Below, in pieces: positions 37,407 through 52,208 of a stretch of 64,000 bases of DNA. The stretch is taken from contig NZ_JAYEZN010000001.1 of assembly GCF_037031225.1 (NCBI RefSeq), forward strand, positions 2,914,001 through 2,978,000, given 5' to 3'. The position numbers and the translations under genes were made by a program. The stretch comes from Halorientalis sp. LT38 (GTDB taxonomy: Archaea > Halobacteriota > Halobacteria > Halobacteriales > Haloarculaceae). Under the pieces are notes generated by a model that saw only the letters and a program-made list of their open reading frames with translations, ran no database searches and was not told the DNA's origin. Within the stretch, counting starts at the first letter, position 1; each line of letters begins with the position of its first letter.

Positions 37407-39371
37407 TCAGTTACAGGTGAGGCCTCCACCGGCCGTATCGATGGTGTCGCCGCTGTTGTCGATCGTCCCGGTGCAGGTCCTGGCGTTGCCCGCGTCGTCG
37501 ACGACCGTCATGTTGACGGCGACGCCGTTGTTCCCGTTGAAACTGGCCTCGGCGTTGAGCGCGAGCGATTCGTCGGTGAACGATCCCGGCGAGGTGGTGA
37601 CCACGCGCTGGTTGAACTGGTTCCCGTTCGTCGCCCGGCTAGCGGTGAGTATCGTGCGGTCGATCCCCGACGCGTCACTGGCCTGGAGGTCGAAGAAGAC
37701 GTCGTCGTCGAAGTCCAGGAAGATCCCTGAGTTGTCGTCGTGGGTCGCAGCCGCGGAACTGATCGTGGGGGGCGTCGTGTCACTTCCGCCACCACCGGCC
37801 CCGACGTTCACGAGTTCGACGGCGATGTCCTCGCTGGAGCCACCGCTCGCCACGAAAACGCCGACGGTTCCATTGTTCTGTGCCAGCAGATCCGTCGTCG
37901 CTTCACCGTTCGCGTCGGACGTCTCGGTGTTCTTGCTCGAACTCGCGACGGTCGAGTCGTTCACGCCGTAGTCGTGCGTCACTCCCTCGACGCTCGGTGT
38001 CGTGTCGCTGCGAAGCGTCAGCGAGGAACTCCCGCTGTTGCCGACGTCCCAGACACACGATTCGTCGTCGCAGTTCGAGAGCGCCGCGCCGGAATTGTCG
38101 CCCGTCGCGTCCGGGGCGAGCCAGTCGACCGTGTACGCGCTGGAACCGCCACTCCCACCGTCGGTGTCCCTGACGTTGACTCTCAGCACCGCGTTCTCCG
38201 GCCTGCCCGCATCGAACGGGCCAGTGTAGTCTTCGACGTCGGATTGATCGACCGCGTAGCTGACTCTGACGGTATCCGTCAGCTCCGACGTGGTGATGTC
38301 GCCTGGGGCACTGTATTCGAGTGCGACGCGCCCCTGGTCGTCTGTCTCTCCGGGTTCAGTCACCGTTCCCTCCGCCGCGCTCGCGTTCACGTCCACACCG
38401 CTGACGGGATTGTTGAATCGGTCGCGGACTTCCACCACCAGTCGTTCGTCCCCGCCTTCTGGGACCGACGACCCGTTCCCCTCGACCGGGAGGAGGTATC
38501 CCGTTTCGGAGGCTCGGCGTCCGGTCCCGACGCCCACTTTCGCCATCCGGAGGTCGTAGGTGGTGTCCGGCTCCAGATCCAGTCGCAACAGTCCCCAGTC
38601 GCCGTCTATCGTGCCCGGATCGACCGTCAGGCCCGCGACGTTGGACTCGCCCGCAGTCAGCTCACGCCAGCGCTCGGCCGAGAGTCGCGTCGGCACCTCG
38701 ATCGTGACGTTGTGCGAGGTATTCCGCACCGAGACCGTGCGCGTCGACGTGCTCAGTGCGTCGGTATCGACCGAGATGGCTCCGGTCCGCGTCGCGTCGA
38801 GGGACCCGTTGAGTGTCACGAGTGTGATGCGATCGCCCTCGATCAGTCCCTGCCCGGTTCTCGGAACCGACTGGTCCCCGTCCGCGCCGTACAGGACGGA
38901 ATTCTCGTAGATCGAACGCGGCGCCTCGTCGTATCGATTGTAGTCCGGGGTGTAGACGAGACCGCCCGTCTCGTAGACGTGCGCCGATCCGTTCCAGAAG
39001 TCCGCGAGTTCACCGCTCCCGCTGGCGGTGGCGTTCTCGATCGTCAGGTTGTATCGCCCGTCGGTGGTTCCAACGGTCCGGAGCGACCCGCTTGCGGGCC
39101 CCGGATTCAGTGCGACGAGGCGGCTCGGATACCGGACCCCGAGATCAACCGTCACCGACCGCCCCGTGTTCCCGCCAGGGACCGAGACGATCGCATTTCT
39201 GACGTCCTGTAACTGCCCCTGCACTTCCTGACTGTGGGTGAACTCCACCTGCTTGTTCTGATTGGGGACGACGAACGCCTGGTAGGTCGAGAAGGCGATG
39301 ATCAGCGCCGCGAACAGCAGCACGGCTCCGATCTGGATGGCCTGCCCGCGCTCGTCGTCCCGAAAGATCAC
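37407..39371 (-). CDS. large pilin-like surface protein with Ig-like domain
   Basis: The 654-residue protein begins with a class III (prepilin-type) leader, DERGQAIQIGAVLLFAALII, in which RG precedes the hydrophobic stretch, as in PibD-processed archaeal pilins. The rest is an extracellular Ser/Thr/Asn-rich beta protein. Residues about 315-360 resemble a BIG1-type Ig fold (DRFNNPVSGVDVNASAAEGT). Four cysteines (SNCDDESC and, near the end, TCTGT and LTCN) could form disulfides, and many NxS/T sequons are present. It is probably a surface or pilus-tip protein. The C-terminus has no sorting signal. Confidence 0.8.
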   Translation of the reverse strand: MIFRDDERGQAIQIGAVLLFAALIIAFSTYQAFVVPNQNKQVEFTHSQEVQGQLQDVRNAIVSVPGGNTGRSVTVDLGVRYPSRLVALNPGPASGSLRTVGTTDGRYNLTIENATASGSGELADFWNGSAHVYETGGLVYTPDYNRYDEAPRSIYENSVLYGADGDQSVPRTGQGLIEGDRITLVTLNGSLDATRTGAISVDTDALSTSTRTVSVRNTSHNVTIEVPTRLSAERWRELTAGESNVAGLTVDPGTIDGDWGLLRLDLEPDTTYDLRMAKVGVGTGRRASETGYLLPVEGNGSSVPEGGDERLVVEVRDRFNNPVSGVDVNASAAEGTVTEPGETDDQGRVALEYSAPGDITTSELTDTVRVSYAVDQSDVEDYTGPFDAGRPENAVLRVNVRDTDGGSGGSSAYTVDWLAPDATGDNSGAALSNCDDESCVWDVGNSGSSSLTLRSDTTPSVEGVTHDYGVNDSTVASSSKNTETSDANGEATTDLLAQNNGTVGVFVASGGSSEDIAVELVNVGAGGGGSDTTPPTISSAAATHDDNSGIFLDFDDDVFFDLQASDASGIDRTILTASRATNGNQFNQRVVTTSPGSFTDESLALNAEASFNGNNGVAVNMTVVDDAGNARTCTGTIDNSGDTIDTAGGGLTCN

Positions 39372-45201: not shown

Positions 45202-45276
45202 CCCCGCGATAGCGACCCCGTTCGGCCCCGACGCAGCCACTCGGGCGTGGCCGGTCCTCGACGCTCAAAACGGCCA

Positions 45277-45318
45277 GTATGCTTATTCTTCACGATGCAC
45301 AACATCTGTGAACTACGA
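45277..45318 (+). promoter_or_regulatory. promoter motif shared with the pilin operon
   Basis: The segment contains, in order, TATGCTTATTC, ACGATG and ACAACA just before the vWA gene. The minus-strand promoter of the pilin operon at 52016-52044 has TATACTTATTC, ACGATG and ACAACA in the same order with slightly different spacing. The TTATTC core would place transcription about 5 bases before the ATG at 45318. Confidence 0.6.
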
Positions 45319-47471
45319 TGTGGGAGAACGATCGGTCGCTCGGCGACGCGGATCGGGGTGCCTCGGAGATCCTGGGGATCGTCCTGTTACTCGGGCTCGT
45401 CCTTGGGGGCGCGATGGCGGTCGTCGTGATGGGGTCCGGCGCGATCACGGAGGCCAAAGACCAACACGAGATGGAGAGTGCCCTCGCGAGCGTGCAACAG
45501 CTCGACGCGACCTTCGGCTCGTTCGGCCGGCAGACCGACGACGCGACGGTCGCCTTCGACCTCGGGAACGTCGACCCCGGAGACGTTCGCGTCGTTCGGA
45601 CGGGATCGATCGCCGTGACGGCCAACGACGACCCGAACTGTCAGGCCTCGATCCCGCTCAGCTCGATCCGGTACGAGGACGACTCGGGGCGGACCGTCGC
45701 CTACGAGGCGGGCGGCGTCTGGCGGGCCGGGGAGACCGGGAGTGCGATGGTTTCGGCGCCGGACGTATCCTTCCAGAACGGGACGCTGTCGGTGTCGGTC
45801 GTCGACGTCGTGGGTGACGTCAACGCCTCGCGGATCGATGCCCGGATGAACGCGACGCGCTCGGAGGCGACCACCCAGCGGCTGATCGACGACCTCTACG
45901 AGGACGATTGTCAGCGGCCGGACAATCTCACGATGTCGGTCCAGAGCGACTTCGACGTCGCCTGGGCGGACTACCTCCGCGGCGAGACGGGACAGCCGGT
46001 GACGCGGTTCGAGGGCAACGACACCGTTCGCCTGTCGCTGTCGAGCGACGAGTTGCCCGTGGCGGCCGACGACGCGGCCAATCAGGTGATCAACCTCTCA
46101 CAGTCGCCGACGGCCGCCTACATGGACCAGGTCGAAATCCTGAACGATCAGATCACCGTCAACAAGTCGGTCAAGAACACGTTCACCGTGACCGCGGCGC
46201 CGCTGCACGACGGAATCGACGTGGGGGACGTTCGGGACGTCGAGACCTCACAGAACGTCCGCCGCAAGTCCCTCGACCTGGTGTTCATCATGGACCGGAG
46301 CCTCTCGATGAACGACGGCTACCCGTCGAAGCTCAGTCAGGCGAAGTCGGCCTCGAAGGGCTTTCTCGCCGACCTCGATAGCACCGTCGACCGGGCCGGG
46401 CTGGTGGGATACACGATGGACGGCTACACCGACGTAACCAAGATCTACCTGATCGACGACGAGAAGTACCTCTCGAACGACTTCAGTGACACCGGCGTCA
46501 ACGGCACTATCGACCGGCTCGGCACGGAGGGCGGGACGAACATCAACCGGGGAATCGACGTCTCGAACGAACTCTACGACTACTTCAGCGACCAGAACAG
46601 GGACCGGGTCGCCATCCTCCTGACCGACGGCGTCAACGACCATCCCGACGGGCAACCGGAGACGGACGAGTTGAACGCCTCGACGATCGACAAAGCGAAG
46701 GCGGCCGCTCGAAACGACGTGACCATCTACACGGTCGGGTTCAGCTCGAGCGAAGACCAGGTCGCGGATGACCTCTTGCGAGACGTCGCGGACATCACGG
46801 GTGGGGAGTACTACTACGCCGCGGACGGTGACGAACTAGGTGACCGATTCGGTACGATCCTCGAGTCTATCCAGTCGGAGCCACGGGTGACCAGGGCGCC
46901 GATCACGACGTCGTTCTCGACCGACGGTGAGCACCCACCGACGATCGCCGGCGACAGCTCGCACCTCGCCCGCGACGACAGCGGCGGCACGACGTATCTC
47001 AACGTCAACGACCCGACGGCGCCGTCGCTGTTCGGGCACTCCTTCCCCGTCTCCGGCGGCGAGAGCGTCGACATCGGTGCCACGGAGTACGATTGCGACT
47101 CCTGGGCGGGAACCTCCCAGACCGTCCAGAGCGGCGGGGATACCTACCAGGTCGCCAGGTGCGCGTCGCTCGACGAGAGCAGCGGGACGACGGTTCCGAC
47201 GACCGTCTACACCGACGGCGACGACGCCAGCCCGCTGCTTTCCAGCGACACCGCCGACTGGCAGACGGACATGGGGGACCAGCTCGACCCGTATCTCGAC
47301 GGGAGTGATCTGGATCTGAAGAGCAACCAGGCCATCATCGCCTACGACTTCGACGACAGCGTCGACTCGGACAACCTGCTGCTGGTCCTGTACGAGGTCG
47401 GCCTCCCGGACCAGGGAACCAGAGCCGAGGTCTTCGAACCGCGGGTCCACAACGTCTCCCTGGACGGGTGA
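45318..47471 (+). CDS. vWA-domain protein with pilin-like leader
   Basis: The 717-residue protein has a prepilin-type N-terminus (DADRGASEILGIVLLLGLVL). A beta-rich region (about 55-310) with NxS/T sequons follows, then a von Willebrand A domain (about 318-515) with the MIDAS sequence DLVFIMDRSLSMNDGYPSKL, TEGGTNINRGIDVSNELYDY and VAILLTDGVNDHPDG. The last 200 residues are another beta domain with paired cysteines. vWA domains with a MIDAS bind ligands through a divalent cation, so this is a candidate adhesin or structural tip. It faces five pilin-like genes across a 10-base gap at its 3' end and shares a promoter motif with them. Leaderless start. Confidence 0.88.
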   Translation: MWENDRSLGDADRGASEILGIVLLLGLVLGGAMAVVVMGSGAITEAKDQHEMESALASVQQLDATFGSFGRQTDDATVAFDLGNVDPGDVRVVRTGSIAVTANDDPNCQASIPLSSIRYEDDSGRTVAYEAGGVWRAGETGSAMVSAPDVSFQNGTLSVSVVDVVGDVNASRIDARMNATRSEATTQRLIDDLYEDDCQRPDNLTMSVQSDFDVAWADYLRGETGQPVTRFEGNDTVRLSLSSDELPVAADDAANQVINLSQSPTAAYMDQVEILNDQITVNKSVKNTFTVTAAPLHDGIDVGDVRDVETSQNVRRKSLDLVFIMDRSLSMNDGYPSKLSQAKSASKGFLADLDSTVDRAGLVGYTMDGYTDVTKIYLIDDEKYLSNDFSDTGVNGTIDRLGTEGGTNINRGIDVSNELYDYFSDQNRDRVAILLTDGVNDHPDGQPETDELNASTIDKAKAAARNDVTIYTVGFSSSEDQVADDLLRDVADITGGEYYYAADGDELGDRFGTILESIQSEPRVTRAPITTSFSTDGEHPPTIAGDSSHLARDDSGGTTYLNVNDPTAPSLFGHSFPVSGGESVDIGATEYDCDSWAGTSQTVQSGGDTYQVARCASLDESSGTTVPTTVYTDGDDASPLLSSDTADWQTDMGDQLDPYLDGSDLDLKSNQAIIAYDFDDSVDSDNLLLVLYEVGLPDQGTRAEVFEPRVHNVSLDG

Positions 47472-47480
47472 CCCGGCCCG

Positions 47481-48281
47481 TCACCGGCGGAAGGAGACGT
47501 TGACGACCGTCCGTCGGACGTAGACGCCGCCGTCGTCACCGACGGTACAGCGCGCGGTGTCAGAGTCGACCATCGTCCACCCCGACTCCGGACGCTCGAA
47601 GTAGTCCACCCAGAGCGACTCGCGTGGCGAGTTCCGGACCGAGACGTCCACCTCGGTCGGTGCGGTCGAACTGTTCGCGCCGGTCCGGTTGAGCGGGAAC
47701 AGGAGGTCGGTCCGCTCTCGCACGCCGACCACGTGGACGACGCCGGAGCCGACCTGGCGCTGGTCCGGCCCGTCGAGTTCGACGATCGAAACGATCGCCC
47801 GCTCGCCGTCGCGACAGACCAGCTCCGGACGCTGCTTCATGACCCCGCCGGCCGATCCATCCGACCGGAAGACGGCCCCGTTCTCGAAGGCGACGTCCGT
47901 GTCCGCGAGTTCGAGCCGCAGCGAGCCCGGCCTGAACGAGTGCTCGACGTTGGTGTCCGTCTCCACCTCGATCGCCGTGTCGTCGATCCACCGCAGCCGG
48001 CCGACCGAGAGGTCGATCCTGGTCGAGTGGCGCTTGGCGCGTTGCTGCTGGAGTCGATCGAGGTCGTTCCCGACGGCTTCCATGTTCCGGACGGCGTTGT
48101 TGTGTTGCTCGTGGAGCTGGAACTCGCCCAGCGAGCCGATCCCGACCGTCGTGATGATCGCCACGGCGGTGATGATGATCGCGAACGTCCCGATGAACCC
48201 GACCAGATCGCTCACGGCGCGGTCGTCGCCGTCGCGGTCTCGCGGCCGGTCACGATCGTCGGTGGGTGTGTTTCGGATCAT
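47481..48281 (-). CDS. pilin-like protein E of the cluster
   Basis: The 266-residue protein has an N-terminal leader DDRAVSDLVGFIGTFAIIIT, with the RA|VSDLVG junction typical of archaeal prepilins, then a helix with NAVRNMEAVGNDLDRLQQQR and a beta domain with cysteines (LVCRDG, TARCTVG). It is the last of five consecutive minus-strand genes with such leaders. I recall the DUF7289 label for related proteins, unverified. The start MIRNTP is preferred; the longer open frame upstream overlaps the preceding gene out of frame. Confidence 0.82.
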   Translation of the reverse strand: MIRNTPTDDRDRPRDRDGDDRAVSDLVGFIGTFAIIITAVAIITTVGIGSLGEFQLHEQHNNAVRNMEAVGNDLDRLQQQRAKRHSTRIDLSVGRLRWIDDTAIEVETDTNVEHSFRPGSLRLELADTDVAFENGAVFRSDGSAGGVMKQRPELVCRDGERAIVSIVELDGPDQRQVGSGVVHVVGVRERTDLLFPLNRTGANSSTAPTEVDVSVRNSPRESLWVDYFERPESGWTMVDSDTARCTVGDDGGVYVRRTVVNVSFRR

Positions 48282-48289
48282 CGTATCAC

Positions 48290-49801
48290 TCAGTCGTACA
48301 GGGTAGAGACGTACTCCAGCCGGTAGATCGGCGTCTCGCCGCTCTGGATCCCGCCGCTGCTGGTCGCCTCCCGCAGGACGACGTAGTGCAGGCCCCACTC
48401 GTCGTTGACCTGGGCGCGGTAGGCGTAGCGGTCCTGGCTCGCGTCCGTCAGGCTCGAGTCCTGGCTGAAGTCGGCCTCGGTGAGCGTACCGTCCTCGAAC
48501 GTGAACAGCCGGTCCCACTCGACTTCCACCGTGTCCATCGGTTTGTCGGTGATCAACACCGCATCGAGGTCCGTGTCGTCCTCCTCGAGGTAGAAGTTCC
48601 TGATCTCCATGCTCCCGACCACGTCGGTGAACCGGGTCACGTTGGATTGCCCATCCACCTCGTGGCGGACCGAGAAGGACATCGTCTCGCCGCTGATGTC
48701 CTGGCCGTAGTCGTCGACGGTGATCGTCACGTCGTCACCGGGCTGGACCGTCGTGTCGAAGCCGGTCACGATTATGCCGTCGTTCGGGACTTCGGTGTCG
48801 TCGATCTCACGCACGCTCGAATCGGTGTCGGAGGTGATCGTGACCTCTGGTTCACACAACCACCCGTAGCAATCCAGTTCGTCGACGTCGTTCGGCGGAT
48901 CGATCAGGATCGACTCGATGGTCACCGGGTGGGAACTCCAGTTGTTCGTCATCGTGAACTCCGTCTCGTCGTTGCCGCTCGCGATCGTGAGATCGCGGTT
49001 GTACTCGAGCCCGGCGACGGTGATGTTCTGGCTCGTCTTGACCGTGGCGCCGTCGTCGTCGGTGACGTTCAGGTAGACTTCGTAGTAACCGGGGTCGTGA
49101 TCGTAGTCGTAGGTGATCTTCGGTTTGGAACTCCCGATCCGATCGCCGTTGCCGAAGCTCCAGGTGTAGTTGACGATGCGACTGTCGTCGACGGACGTCG
49201 ACCCGTCGAACAGGATGTCGTTCGAACTGTCCGGCGCGCCCGGGTCGATCGTGAACCGCGGGACGGGTTCCTGATTCAGGCCTCCAGACACCCGCGTCGT
49301 GCTCGTGAAGTCGTGGCCGACGCCGGGCCGAAGCGACTGCCGGCCCGCGTCGGGTGCCGCCTCGCCCTGGGGCCGTCCTTCGAGTCTGAACTCGCCGGCG
49401 CCGTTCGAATCGACCGACAGGTCGTTCTCGGCCTGCAGCGGGACGTATTCGGTGATCGAGTGCCCCGCCGACGTGACGACCAGACACGTATCGGGATCCA
49501 TGCCGTCCGCTTCGCAGTCGCTGCCCTGCCGGAGTCTGACGTTGTAGGACTCGCCGGCGATCAGTGGCTGGTGGCGCACGGACATGGACACGTTGCCGCC
49601 ACGCTCGCTCATCCGGTCGAGCTGTGTCAGTTCCGCCGCGAGCCTGTTCCCCACGGTCTCCATCTGCTGGCGGGCGCTGGACTCGCGCTGATCGGACAGG
49701 AGCGTCCCCGCCGAGTACAGCAGCCCGACGATGAGCAGGCTCGCGATCCCGACCGCCAGGACGTGGGAGACGACCGCGCTCCCTCTGGACTGTCCGTTCA
49801 T
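48290..49801 (-). CDS. pilin-like protein D with PKD domain
   Basis: The 503-residue protein starts GQSRGSAVVSHVLAVGIASL, a prepilin-type leader. Residues about 180-270 form a PKD-type Ig fold (PRFTIDPGAPDSSNDILFDG, RIVNYTWSFGNGD, YYEVYLNVTDDDGA), common in archaeal surface proteins. The remainder is beta-rich, with one pair of close cysteines (ELDCYGWLCEPE). Related proteins may be labelled DUF7266 (recalled, unverified). It overlaps the upstream gene by 4 bases. Confidence 0.83.
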   Translation of the reverse strand: MNGQSRGSAVVSHVLAVGIASLLIVGLLYSAGTLLSDQRESSARQQMETVGNRLAAELTQLDRMSERGGNVSMSVRHQPLIAGESYNVRLRQGSDCEADGMDPDTCLVVTSAGHSITEYVPLQAENDLSVDSNGAGEFRLEGRPQGEAAPDAGRQSLRPGVGHDFTSTTRVSGGLNQEPVPRFTIDPGAPDSSNDILFDGSTSVDDSRIVNYTWSFGNGDRIGSSKPKITYDYDHDPGYYEVYLNVTDDDGATVKTSQNITVAGLEYNRDLTIASGNDETEFTMTNNWSSHPVTIESILIDPPNDVDELDCYGWLCEPEVTITSDTDSSVREIDDTEVPNDGIIVTGFDTTVQPGDDVTITVDDYGQDISGETMSFSVRHEVDGQSNVTRFTDVVGSMEIRNFYLEEDDTDLDAVLITDKPMDTVEVEWDRLFTFEDGTLTEADFSQDSSLTDASQDRYAYRAQVNDEWGLHYVVLREATSSGGIQSGETPIYRLEYVSTLYD

Positions 49802-50766
49802 GGATACACGCTCACGTTCTGCGTTCGGTCGATGGTGACGCCAGTGGTGTCGAACGTGACGGTGACGTTCGCCTCCCAGACGACGGGGGCGGTGCAGGGA
49901 CGGTCGGCATCGACCCCGTCGTCACAGGTCGGGTACGGATCCACGGTGCCGTCGTCGTAGGTGTCGACCGTGTCGTTCGCCACGAGGCCGAACTTCCCGA
50001 CGCCGCCCTGGCCGTTCTCGATCCGGACGGCGACTGGTCCGCCGACGTTTTCGAGGCCGGGGAAGTCGCAATCGGCTGTGTGCGCGCGTCCCGAGACCAA
50101 CCCGAGGAGGGAACGGCCCCCGCGGGTGTCGCAGGTCGTGGTGCCGTCGGGGCGGTCGCTGGCCGTCCAGTCGACGCGCACGCTCCCGTCGCGCTCCTTG
50201 CCAAGTTCGAGCTGCAGGGACGAGCCGGTCGCGTTCGTCGCCGACACGTTCACCGTGCTGAGCCACCTGCTTCGCATGTTGGCGTTGACGACGAACCGGC
50301 CAACCTCTCGACGCTGGCCCGAGACGTTCCGGATCAGCCACCAGTCGGAGCCGCCGCCCGGCGACTGGTACCGGTCGTCACCGACCTGGACGATGCGCTC
50401 CCCCCAGGTACTGCTCGCGTTGTGGTACGCCAGATCGACGTAGGTCGAGCCGCTGGCGCCGTAGGTCTCACCCAGGAGACGACCGTACCGGCTCACGTTC
50501 TCGTGGATCGAGGCGTTCACCGCGGGCGCGGTGACGTTTCGCTCCCGGTGGTTCACCTCGAGCAGGAGTCGCTGGACGTTCCGCCTGGCCTCGAACTCGA
50601 ACGACTCCGCCTGGTCCGCGCGGTCGAGTCGGTCGCCCGCCAGCCCGTCCTCGGTGACGATGAGCGTGTTCACGACGACGACCAGGCCGATGATGACGAA
50701 CGCGACCGCGATGGCACCGGTCAACAGGACCTGCGCCCGTTCGCGCCGGCTGCTCTGGCTCACCAT
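49798..50766 (-). CDS. pilin-like protein C
   Basis: The 322-residue protein has the leader SRRERAQVLLTGAIAVAFVI, with RA|QVLLTG. A coiled stretch (DRADQAESFEFEARRNVQRL) and a beta-rich domain with many N-glycosylation sequons (NVT, NAS, NVS) follow, then three cysteines in TTCDTRG, TADCDFPG and PTCDDGVDADRPC. I recall the DUF7261 name for this type, unverified. It overlaps the neighbours on both sides by a few bases, so it is part of a coupled operon. Confidence 0.83.
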   Translation of the reverse strand: MVSQSSRRERAQVLLTGAIAVAFVIIGLVVVVNTLIVTEDGLAGDRLDRADQAESFEFEARRNVQRLLLEVNHRERNVTAPAVNASIHENVSRYGRLLGETYGASGSTYVDLAYHNASSTWGERIVQVGDDRYQSPGGGSDWWLIRNVSGQRREVGRFVVNANMRSRWLSTVNVSATNATGSSLQLELGKERDGSVRVDWTASDRPDGTTTCDTRGGRSLLGLVSGRAHTADCDFPGLENVGGPVAVRIENGQGGVGKFGLVANDTVDTYDDGTVDPYPTCDDGVDADRPCTAPVVWEANVTVTFDTTGVTIDRTQNVSVYP

Positions 50767-51386
50767 ACGGTCAATCGCACCTCCACGACGTTGTACACCG
50801 GTCCGTCGACGGCGTTCGGCACGGGATAGTAGCCCCCGCTGCCACCGCGACGCGAGCTGATCTCCTGGAGTTCGATCCCGGACGTCGTCGGGGCGGTGAG
50901 CGTCTGGTTGTCGTACAGCGTGATCGTGTACGTCGCCCGGACGGCGGTCTCGTCGGGTTCACCGCGCCTGACGATGGGCGTCGACTCCCAGCCGTTCGAG
51001 AGCGACTCGTTCCGGTACCTGATCCGGAGGTTGTAGGTTCGGCCCTGCTCGGTGATCGTCGACTCGAGGATCCGGCCGACCTGTCCCGGTGGCGTCCCGT
51101 CGCCGTAGCCGACGCGGCTCCCGACCGCCCCGTAGTACTGCTCCTGGGCGGGCGCGTAGTACCGAATCAGCTCCGAGAGGCCGAACGTGTCGTTCCGTGC
51201 CGCCATCCGCAACGCGTCGTCGGCCTGGGCCGACACCTCGGCCTCCGCTCCGGGACCGCCGTCGTCGTCGGTCGGGACCGCGTTGATGGCCTGTAACGCG
51301 AACAGCACGGCCGTCAGGAGGACGATGGCCCCGATGAGCCCCTCCAGGGTGAAGGCCTGTCCCCGCTCGTCGGGCGCGGCCCCCAT
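50760..51386 (-). CDS. pilin-like protein B
   Basis: The 208-residue protein starts MGAAPDERGQAFTLEGLIGA, where RG|QAFTLEG closely resembles the +1 to +5 region (FTLIE-like) of bacterial type IV pilins and pseudopilins. A hydrophobic helix and a compact beta domain (YNLRIRYRNESLSNGWESTP, VRATYTITLYDNQTL) follow. A longer frame beginning at 51416 was rejected because it overlaps the upstream gene. Possibly DUF7288 (unverified). It may be a minor pseudopilin-like subunit. Confidence 0.83.
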   Translation of the reverse strand: MGAAPDERGQAFTLEGLIGAIVLLTAVLFALQAINAVPTDDDGGPGAEAEVSAQADDALRMAARNDTFGLSELIRYYAPAQEQYYGAVGSRVGYGDGTPPGQVGRILESTITEQGRTYNLRIRYRNESLSNGWESTPIVRRGEPDETAVRATYTITLYDNQTLTAPTTSGIELQEISSRRGGSGGYYPVPNAVDGPVYNVVEVRLTVW

Positions 51387-51388
51387 GC

Positions 51389-51892
51389 TCACCACACCTC
51401 CACCACGAGCCGACACACCGGATCGCAGCTCGTCCCGCGGAGTTCGACGAGTCGGCTCGCGCTCGCGACCGACCCGCTGGTCCGGTTCAGGTCGTTCGTG
51501 AGCGGGGCGCCACCGGCCCTGACGACGGACCCGTTCGGCACCGTCCGGACGGAGATACTGACCCGTGCCGTCGGTGGGAGCGCGTACCGCTCCCGGATCT
51601 CGTCTTGCTCGAGGGCCAGCACCGTGTCGAGGGTGCTCGTCGACAGGGTGGGGTCGTCCAGCGCAACCGAGAGGTTCGAGACCAGCGTCTGTGCGACCCT
51701 GTCCGCCTGGGCCTCCTCGTCCCCGCCGACGCCGACCGTGTACGGCGACAGGTACCCCGGCAGGAGACTGAGGACGAACATCGTCGTCACGAGGAACAGC
51801 GACACCCCCAGGAGGAAATCCTGTAGCGTCTGTCCGCGCCGGTCCCCCCGGAGCCGTCCGGCCGTCACCCCGCCGTCTCGATCTGTTCTCAT
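51389..51892 (-). CDS. pilin-like protein A, first gene of the cluster
   Basis: The 167-residue protein has the leader RGDRRGQTLQDFLLGVSLFL, with RG|QTLQDF, then a helix and a small domain with two cysteines (LRGTSCDPVCRLVVEVW). It is the first of five abutting or overlapping minus-strand genes. A 36-codon leaderless micro-ORF ends 12 bases before its ATG. Possibly DUF7287 (unverified). There is no pilus ATPase or platform gene in the window, so assembly machinery must be encoded elsewhere. Confidence 0.82.
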   Translation of the reverse strand: MRTDRDGGVTAGRLRGDRRGQTLQDFLLGVSLFLVTTMFVLSLLPGYLSPYTVGVGGDEEAQADRVAQTLVSNLSVALDDPTLSTSTLDTVLALEQDEIRERYALPPTARVSISVRTVPNGSVVRAGGAPLTNDLNRTSGSVASASRLVELRGTSCDPVCRLVVEVW

Positions 51893-51904
51893 CTCTGATT
51901 CAGT

Positions 51905-52015
51905 TTACCCCGACGTCATCTGGCTGCAACTATCGCGTACCGATCGGACCGAGAAACTGCAGGGGCCAATCGAGGATGCGTCTCGTATCCGATCACGTTG
52001 CACATTGTCTACCAT
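51905..52015 (-). CDS. 36-residue leaderless micro-ORF ahead of the pilin operon (putative)
   Basis: A minus-strand frame (MVDNVQRDRIRDASSIGPCS...) begins where the upstream TTATTC element predicts transcription to start. It ends with TAA 12 bases before the first pilin gene. There is no stronger signal for that gene's own translation, so coupling through this short frame is plausible. No family is recognised. Confidence 0.35.
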   Translation of the reverse strand: MVDNVQRDRIRDASSIGPCSFSVRSVRDSCSQMTSG

Positions 52016-52044
52016 TTGTTGTTCATCATCGTGAATAAGTATAG
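52016..52044 (-). promoter_or_regulatory. pilin operon promoter motif
   Basis: Read on the minus strand: TATACTTATTC, ACGATG, then ACAACA. The same three blocks in the same order precede the vWA gene at 45277. The TTATTC core is about 27 bases from the micro-ORF start. The shared blocks suggest co-regulation. Confidence 0.6.
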
Positions 52045-52208
52045 CGGGCGTATCGATCCTGAAATTCGAGGGGGTTGGACCCGCTCCCGAGCCCCGTCGT
52101 GACGGTCGCGGTCGGGGACGAGTACGGCGATCCGGAGTCGACAGTGGTCATGGTGATGGACCGTAAGTAGACCAAAGAGTTAGGTCGCTGGCCGGGGCGG
52201 ATACAGGT

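What the first reader, a model, noticed from the sequence alone, without database searches (positions are those of the whole stretch)
45318..51892. vWA adhesin-like protein and five pilin-like genes form a putative surface assembly
Six proteins of 167, 208, 322, 503, 266 and 717 residues all start with prepilin-type leaders (RG or RA before a hydrophobic helix). Five form a tightly overlapping operon; the sixth has a vWA MIDAS domain and is convergent with them. One has a PKD fold. Several different minor pilins plus one large ligand-binding protein resemble pseudopilin tip complexes or PilY1-tipped pili. No ATPase or platform is present, so a distant machine would be used.
Basis: partly seen in the sequence, partly recalled or inferred. 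Interest (0 to 1): 0.68.

Follow-up and report, generated by a model that had tools for sequence, protein, structure and literature searches.

The report
Swappable adhesive pilus-tip gene cassette
This salt-loving archaeon carries a spare set of six pilus-subunit genes, one ending in a metal-dependent grasping domain, that is probably built into pili by a motor encoded far away on the chromosome, and comparison with relatives suggests that such sets are swapped to give one pilus motor different adhesive tips.

Summary
The six genes are real, at the stated coordinates, with conserved prepilin leaders. They are not an isolated novelty. The five-gene operon is DUF7287-DUF7288-DUF7261-DUF7266-DUF7289, the pilin set that normally follows the PilB4 ATPase and PilC4 platform genes of haloarchaeal type IV pili. 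The convergent gene is a DUF7289 pilin fused to a vWA domain with a complete MIDAS. In 96 family genomes the vWA pilin and its cognate DUF7288 occur in exactly the same 19, as neighbours. In 11 of these, plus 5 of 6 loci in another family, the set sits directly behind pilB4-pilC4. Here it lies between a NicO-like gene and gcvT, while this genome's pilB4-pilC4 carries a different cassette with a ~1300-aa tip protein. All seven f1 genomes with an unlinked vWA cassette keep PilB4 elsewhere. Motor and cassette trees conflict strongly. Adhesive modules vary in place: vWA, CARDB, DUF7305 or DUF7308 on the convergent pilin; ConA-like, ricin-B or malectin lectins, or none, on DUF7266. Best reading: a displaced, intact, interchangeable adhesive-tip cassette assembled in trans by PilB4/PilC4, an archaeal counterpart of modular-pilin tips (S. 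sanguinis PilB/PilC, Myxococcus Kil). Assembly, processing and ligand are untested.

The parts
45318..47471 (+). 717-aa modular pilin: leader DADRG|ASEILG, DUF7289 pilin module (13-235), vWA domain (about 315-520) with complete MIDAS D326xS328xS330/T407/D437, beta-rich C-terminal region
   Evidence: Pfam PF23960 E=6.5e-26, PF00092 E=5.4e-12; AlphaFold helix 17-71 then beta head, alpha/beta vWA fold, pLDDT 76.7; PDB relatives include pilus tip adhesins
47481..48281 (-). 266-aa pilin, DUF7289, leader DDRA|VSDLVG (PilA-like H-domain)
   Evidence: PF23960 E=6.1e-38
48290..49801 (-). 503-aa modular pilin: DUF7266 module + PKD domain + a further ~240 aa; the lectin module found here in many relatives is absent
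   Evidence: PF23928 E=1.3e-13, PF18911 E=4.1e-11; alignment to relatives
49798..50766 (-). 322-aa pilin-like protein, DUF7261 by orthology (Pfam match below cut-off), leader RERA|QVLLTG, no acidic residue near +5
   Evidence: PF23922 23.2 bits vs cut-off 27; 354 bits to the family profile built here; N-terminal helix and beta-sandwich model, pLDDT 66.9
50760..51386 (-). 208-aa pilin, DUF7288, leader DERG|QAFTLEG
   Evidence: PF23959 E=5.5e-45
51389..51892 (-). 167-aa pilin, DUF7287, leader DRRG|QTLQD with Asp+5 that is invariant in 57 of 57 relatives
   Evidence: PF23958 E=6.8e-29
45282..45304 (+). possible promoter element CTTATTCTTCACGATGCACAACA upstream of the vWA gene (weak evidence)
   Evidence: pattern occurs only here and at 52017-52039 in the genome, but p about 0.03 against shuffles and not conserved in other loci
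52017..52039 (-). matching element CTTATTCACGATGATGAACAACA upstream of the five-gene operon (weak evidence)

Best explanation
The locus is one of three paralogous minor-pilin (tip) cassettes in this Halorientalis genome. The six prepilins are cleaved by the one prepilin peptidase found in the genome and assembled by the PilB4 ATPase and PilC4 platform, encoded about 2.5 Mb away in the contig numbering (about 1 Mb the other way round if circular). The small pilins and the DUF7266-PKD protein form a priming or tip complex. The convergent DUF7289-vWA pilin caps it and presents a metal-dependent adhesion site for a protein or surface ligand. In relatives the cassette lies behind pilB4-pilC4; in this lineage it is displaced and a different cassette (with a ~1300-aa CARDB tip protein) occupies that place. 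Shown: gene content, leaders, domains, MIDAS, co-occurrence, PilB4 linkage in relatives, PilB4 retained in genomes with an unlinked cassette, tree conflict. Inferred: processing, assembly by PilB4/C4, tip position, adhesion, and cassette exchange as a way to change what the pilus binds.
For: Families and order. Perfect co-occurrence, 19 of 19 in 96 genomes. Directly behind pilB4-pilC4 in 11 of 19 f1 loci and 5 of 6 f4 loci. The own genome and the six other f1 genomes with an unlinked vWA cassette have PilB4 elsewhere, and in three of them PilB4-PilC4 has no pilin genes beside it. 9 of 12 genomes without DUF7288 lack PilB4; the other three are one genus, two of whose PilB4 genes carry in-frame stops. 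vWA cassettes form one side of a branch (SH-aLRT 99) while their PilB4 partners do not (AU p 1e-59); the reverse test on cassettes gives p 6e-29. Nearest solved structures of the vWA part include pilus tip adhesins SpaC, PitA, RrgA, Mfa5 and S. sanguinis PilB. Lectin modules vary on the DUF7266 partner. Window genes keep 141 of 154 otherwise invariant residues. One prepilin peptidase.
Against: No direct evidence of expression, cleavage or piliation. The window cassette has a long end branch (0.69 against 0.43-0.49 in congeners). Two other PilB-PilC pairs in the genome (L043, L046) could serve instead. The 322-aa protein is below the Pfam cut-off and its model is weak. Stand-alone DUF7289-vWA genes without a cassette occur in family f3, so the vWA pilin may work without the other five. 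The shared upstream motif is not conserved in orthologous loci.
Confidence: 0.72

Rival explanations
1. The cassette is assembled by a different motor of the genome (the PilB-PilC pairs at L046 or L043, for instance a PilB3-type motor that builds PilA pili).
For: Two further PilB-PilC pairs in the own genome; L043 has a DUF7289-like gene overlapping pilC; archaeal motors can use pilins in trans (PMC4858521).
Against: In relatives the cassette lies behind pilB4-pilC4 and no fetched locus shows it behind another pilB; PilB4 is present in every examined genome with an unlinked vWA cassette.
Confidence: 0.12
2. The cassette is a displaced relic on its way to loss.
For: Moved away from its motor, long branch, no lectin module; relatives G058, G167 and G251 show no vWA cassette.
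Against: All six frames open with overlapping or closely spaced genes, MIDAS complete, 141 of 154 otherwise invariant residues kept, within the range of other loci for five of the six genes.
Confidence: 0.08
3. A pseudopilus that secretes or displays a protein, rather than an adhesive pilus tip.
For: Several minor pilins of different sizes, one without an acidic residue near +5 (DUF7261), as in the GspHIJK tip.
Against: No pseudopilin domain by Pfam; the structure search of the 322-aa model gives no pseudopilin; the variable parts are adhesion modules (vWA, lectins), and the lectin module is present or absent between close relatives, as expected for receptors.
Confidence: 0.05

Closest known systems
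PilB4-type (clade 2, Fig. 4B) haloarchaeal type IV pilus, Makarova 2016 (PMC4858521)
   Same: Same kind of pilin set with PilB4/TadC; a pilin family of variable length that duplicates; ATPase-platform module and pilin sets evolve separately, as that paper already stated.
   Different: The vWA-bearing cassette, its unlinked copy, the swapped tip proteins and the lectin series were not found described in the passages read. arCOG assignments were not checked here.
Streptococcus sanguinis T4P tip, PilB (vWA) and PilC (ConA-like lectin) (PMC8179133, PMC9934059)
   Same: A pilin module with a grafted vWA carrying a canonical MIDAS, beside a second modular pilin with a ConA-like lectin; modelled at the tip there.
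   Different: Pilin modules here are DUF7289 and DUF7266, with no match to the bacterial pilin N-terminal family; archaeal motor; the window copy lacks the lectin. That survey covered the bacterial domain IPR012902.
Myxococcus Kil Tad pili with adaptable tips (PMC12075869)
   Same: Four paralogous minor-pilin gene clusters (kilLMN) each giving a distinct tip complex, with the large TadG-like pilin carrying a C-terminal module; three paralogous cassettes here.
   Different: No TadE, TadF or TadG family match here; role there is prey killing; whether one archaeal motor serves all three cassettes is inferred.
PilY1-tipped type IVa pili
   Same: vWA domain thought to be at a pilus tip with minor pilins.
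   Different: PilY1 is not a pilin and has a C-terminal propeller domain (own knowledge); the protein here starts with a prepilin leader and pilin module and has no such match.

Membership tests
PilB4-type haloarchaeal T4P pilin set | DUF7287-DUF7288-DUF7261-DUF7266-DUF7289 in this order on one strand | tested here: met
   DUF7261 only by the profile built here, Pfam score just under cut-off
PilB4-type haloarchaeal T4P pilin set | pilB4-pilC4 directly upstream | tested here: not met
   not at this locus; met in 11 of 18 other f1 vWA loci and 5 of 6 f4 loci; PilB4 is elsewhere in this genome. So this copy is an unlinked paralogue, not a complete PilB4 locus
PilB4-type haloarchaeal T4P pilin set | phylogenetic membership among PilB4-linked cassettes | tested here: met
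   window groups with PilB4-linked cassettes of congeners G109 and G233, SH-aLRT 98
PilB4-type haloarchaeal T4P pilin set | prepilin leader cleaved by PibD | not testable with these tools
   leader motif present in all six; one peptidase gene in the genome
Modular vWA pilin (S. sanguinis PilB kind) | N-terminal pilin module with grafted vWA | tested here: met
   DUF7289 + VWA; predicted long first helix and beta head
Modular vWA pilin (S. sanguinis PilB kind) | complete MIDAS | tested here: met
   DxSxS, T, D
Modular vWA pilin (S. sanguinis PilB kind) | pilin module of the bacterial pilin N-terminal family | tested here: not met
   Pfam gives only DUF7289 for the module; so alike in design, not shown to be homologous
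Modular vWA pilin (S. sanguinis PilB kind) | located at the pilus tip | not testable with these tools
   inferred
Tad minor pilins (TadE, TadF, TadG) | TadE/TadG domain | tested here: not met
   no such Pfam or NCBIfam match
PilY1 | non-pilin protein with C-terminal propeller domain | tested here: not met
   pilin module present, no such Pfam match
T2SS pseudopilin tip (GspH-I-J-K) | pseudopilin folds | tested here: inconclusive
   no sequence match; the 322-aa model is of low confidence and finds no pseudopilin

The most novel reading that the evidence does not exclude
Haloarchaea run an exchangeable-tip system: one conserved motor (PilB4/PilC4) serves several alternative six-gene tip cassettes, linked or unlinked, whose adhesive modules (vWA, CARDB, DUF7305, DUF7308 on one pilin; ConA-like, ricin-B or malectin lectins on another) are swapped in place. 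This would be an archaeal modular-pilin tip that pairs a vWA with lectins, as in S. sanguinis.
Probability: 0.5. Interest if true: 0.68.

Novelty: new variant of a known kind. Interest (0 to 1): 0.56.

Why it matters
[quoted passage not shown] This analysis proposes roles: a conserved core of small pilins, a tip pilin that carries the adhesive module, and a second pilin that carries variable glycan-binding modules. It makes an open question testable: what haloarchaeal PilB4 pili bind, and how one motor can make several kinds of pilus. It also suggests that archaea use their own pilin modules to carry the same adhesive domains as bacterial tips.

Tried and rejected
Shared promoter for the operon and the vWA gene: the motif is unique to these two sites in the genome, but it was derived from them, p is about 0.03 against shuffles, and it is not conserved in other unlinked loci; kept only as a weak note. 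DUF7261 as a GspK-like initiator: model weak, fold search without meaningful hits. PilY1 and TadG membership rejected on domains. Relic hypothesis tested by residue retention and not supported. Literature: no paper in the library mentions DUF7289; HVO_1160 only in Makarova 2016; the library holds no preprints and few subscription papers, so priority cannot be settled.

Full report
OBSERVATION. Pfam gives DUF7289+VWA (717 aa), DUF7289 (266), DUF7266+PKD (503), DUF7261 just below cut-off (322), DUF7288 (208) and DUF7287 (167). All six have an R-[G/A] leader before an uncharged helix; a simple leader scan scored five of the six (the 167-aa protein was missed because of its Asp+5) and 2 of 45 other ORFs of the window. 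Across 54-57 relatives per family the leader is conserved, including Asp+5 in all 57 DUF7287 proteins and QxxTLE in DUF7288.

CONSERVATION. DUF7288 is found in 185 of 194 Halobacteria genomes and, among 14 well-known control genomes, only in Haloferax volcanii. This genome has three DUF7288 loci: at 480.9 kb, 580.9 kb and the window. In 96 genomes of the same family, clear relatives of the vWA protein (E at most 1e-60) and of the 208-aa DUF7288 protein (E at most 1e-48) occur in exactly the same 19 genomes, a few kb apart; the next DUF7288 matches drop to E 1e-24. In a draw of 391 genomes of the class, further vWA relatives occur in family f4 (6 genomes, all with the full cassette) and in f3 (4 genomes; in the two examined the gene stands alone). 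The vWA gene is convergent with the operon in 17 of 19 f1 loci and 5 of 6 f4 loci.

THE MACHINE. Profiles built here were run over 20-kb stretches around the relatives. In 11 of 19 f1 vWA loci and 5 of 6 f4 loci the cassette begins directly behind an ATPase gene and a platform gene. The same order holds in PilB4-type loci of the rest of the class. So the lack of an ATPase is a local feature of the window and of six other f1 genomes. Each of these seven genomes has a PilB4 elsewhere (72-100 percent identity over the matched parts to this genome's PilB4; two pieces of 62 and 83 percent in the incomplete G205), and in G202, G240 and G205 that PilB4-PilC4 pair has no pilin genes beside it in the stretch held. 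Of 12 genomes without DUF7288, nine have no PilB4; the other three belong to one genus, two of them with in-frame stops in PilB4 and one with PilC in pieces. Makarova 2016 (PMC4858521) described the PilB4 system with its own pilin set and noted that the motor module evolves apart from pilin sets.

THREE CASSETTES. In this genome pilB4-pilC4 carries a different cassette whose convergent protein has about 1300 aa (DUF7289 + CARDB); a third cassette at 580 kb has a convergent protein of about 585 aa (DUF7289 + DUF7308). A tree of four concatenated pilin families separates a vWA group (25 rows, SH-aLRT 99) and a giant-protein group (8 rows, 99). The PilB4 tree does not: PilB4 of this genome, next to the giant cassette, nests with those of congeners G233 and G109, which are next to the vWA cassette, and G177 repeats the pattern. 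A single clade of f1 vWA-linked PilB4 is rejected (AU p 1e-59), and so is a clade of the three congeners' PilB4-linked cassettes (p 6e-29). The AU groups were named after an exploratory tree, so the p-values overstate certainty, but the branches involved are starred. G235 has the giant, vWA and short cassettes in tandem behind PilC, so differential loss from tandem arrays is as good an account as direct exchange. In the window genome the vWA cassette lies between a NicO-like gene and gcvT; in three congeners that interval is about as long but holds other genes (thiC-like and ABC transporter genes in those read), in G243 the thiC-like gene alone, and no pilin gene (gene names there from reading the translations, not from a search).

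MODULES. The vWA domain has the complete MIDAS; profile and fold searches put pilus tip adhesins among its nearest solved structures (SpaC, PitA, RrgA, Mfa5, S. sanguinis PilB). The model of the 717-aa protein has a helix 17-71, a beta head and an alpha/beta vWA fold, mean pLDDT 76.7, with low confidence in the first 46 residues. On the DUF7266 partner, 406-903 aa in f1 vWA cassettes against 137-197 in most others, the PKD domain is followed by a ConA-like lectin (Laminin_G_3), a ricin-B lectin, malectin, or nothing recognised. Two close relatives are 97 percent identical over 454 aa and differ by a clean ~340-aa lectin segment. The window protein is of the lectin-less form. On the convergent DUF7289 protein of other cassettes the C-terminal module is DUF7305, DUF7308, CARDB, or vWA+PKD.

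STATE OF THE COPY. The window genes keep 141 of 154 residues that are invariant in all other f1 vWA cassettes, within the range of the others except that the 208-aa protein is the lowest of 19. So it is intact, though on a longer branch.

MECHANISM. Most likely the six prepilins are processed by the one prepilin peptidase, primed as a tip complex and polymerised by PilB4/PilC4 in trans, with the vWA pilin presenting a metal-dependent adhesion site. This is inferred from linkage, retention, homology and analogy to S. sanguinis PilB/PilC (PMC8179133, PMC9934059) and to the Myxococcus Kil tips, where four paralogous tip clusters exist (PMC12075869). Pohlschroder and Esquivel (PMC4371748) note that pilB4-pilC4 is expressed in H. 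volcanii and suggest that it builds a separate pilus-like structure. Processing, assembly, tip position and ligand are untested.

VERDICT. Real, well conserved, mostly a known kind of pilin set; the new part is the displaced vWA tip cassette, the tree conflict between motor and cassette, and the in-place swapping of adhesive modules in archaea.

Noticed in passing
window 37407-39371 (-): Another pilin-like protein of 654 aa, leader DDERG|QAIQIGAVLLFAALIIAF, with a weak Ig-like domain match.
   Followed up: partly
window 45202-52208 against L148, L149, L150, L153: In congeners the NicO-like to gcvT interval holds other genes (thiC-like, in some with ABC transporter genes) and no pilin cassette: a variable site.
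   Followed up: partly
L131, L132 (G044, G156; also G073): A genus without DUF7288 keeps PilB4, with in-frame stops in two of the three genomes and a fragmented PilC in one, as if the motor decays without its cassette.
   Followed up: partly
L083 9738-11411 and L094 9646-12339: Two DUF7266 proteins 97 percent identical over 454 aa differ by a clean lectin segment of about 340 aa.
   Followed up: yes
L079, L080, L081, L078, upstream of DUF7287: A shared element close to CGCCGTAACAATCATACTGGTGGA upstream of unlinked vWA cassettes, not present in the window.
   Followed up: no
L173, L174 (G366, G263): Stand-alone DUF7289-vWA genes of about 965 aa with no pilin cassette within several kb.
   Followed up: no
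L092 (G235): Three cassettes of different type in tandem behind PilC, including a 1302-aa protein with vWA and four PKD matches.
   Followed up: partly
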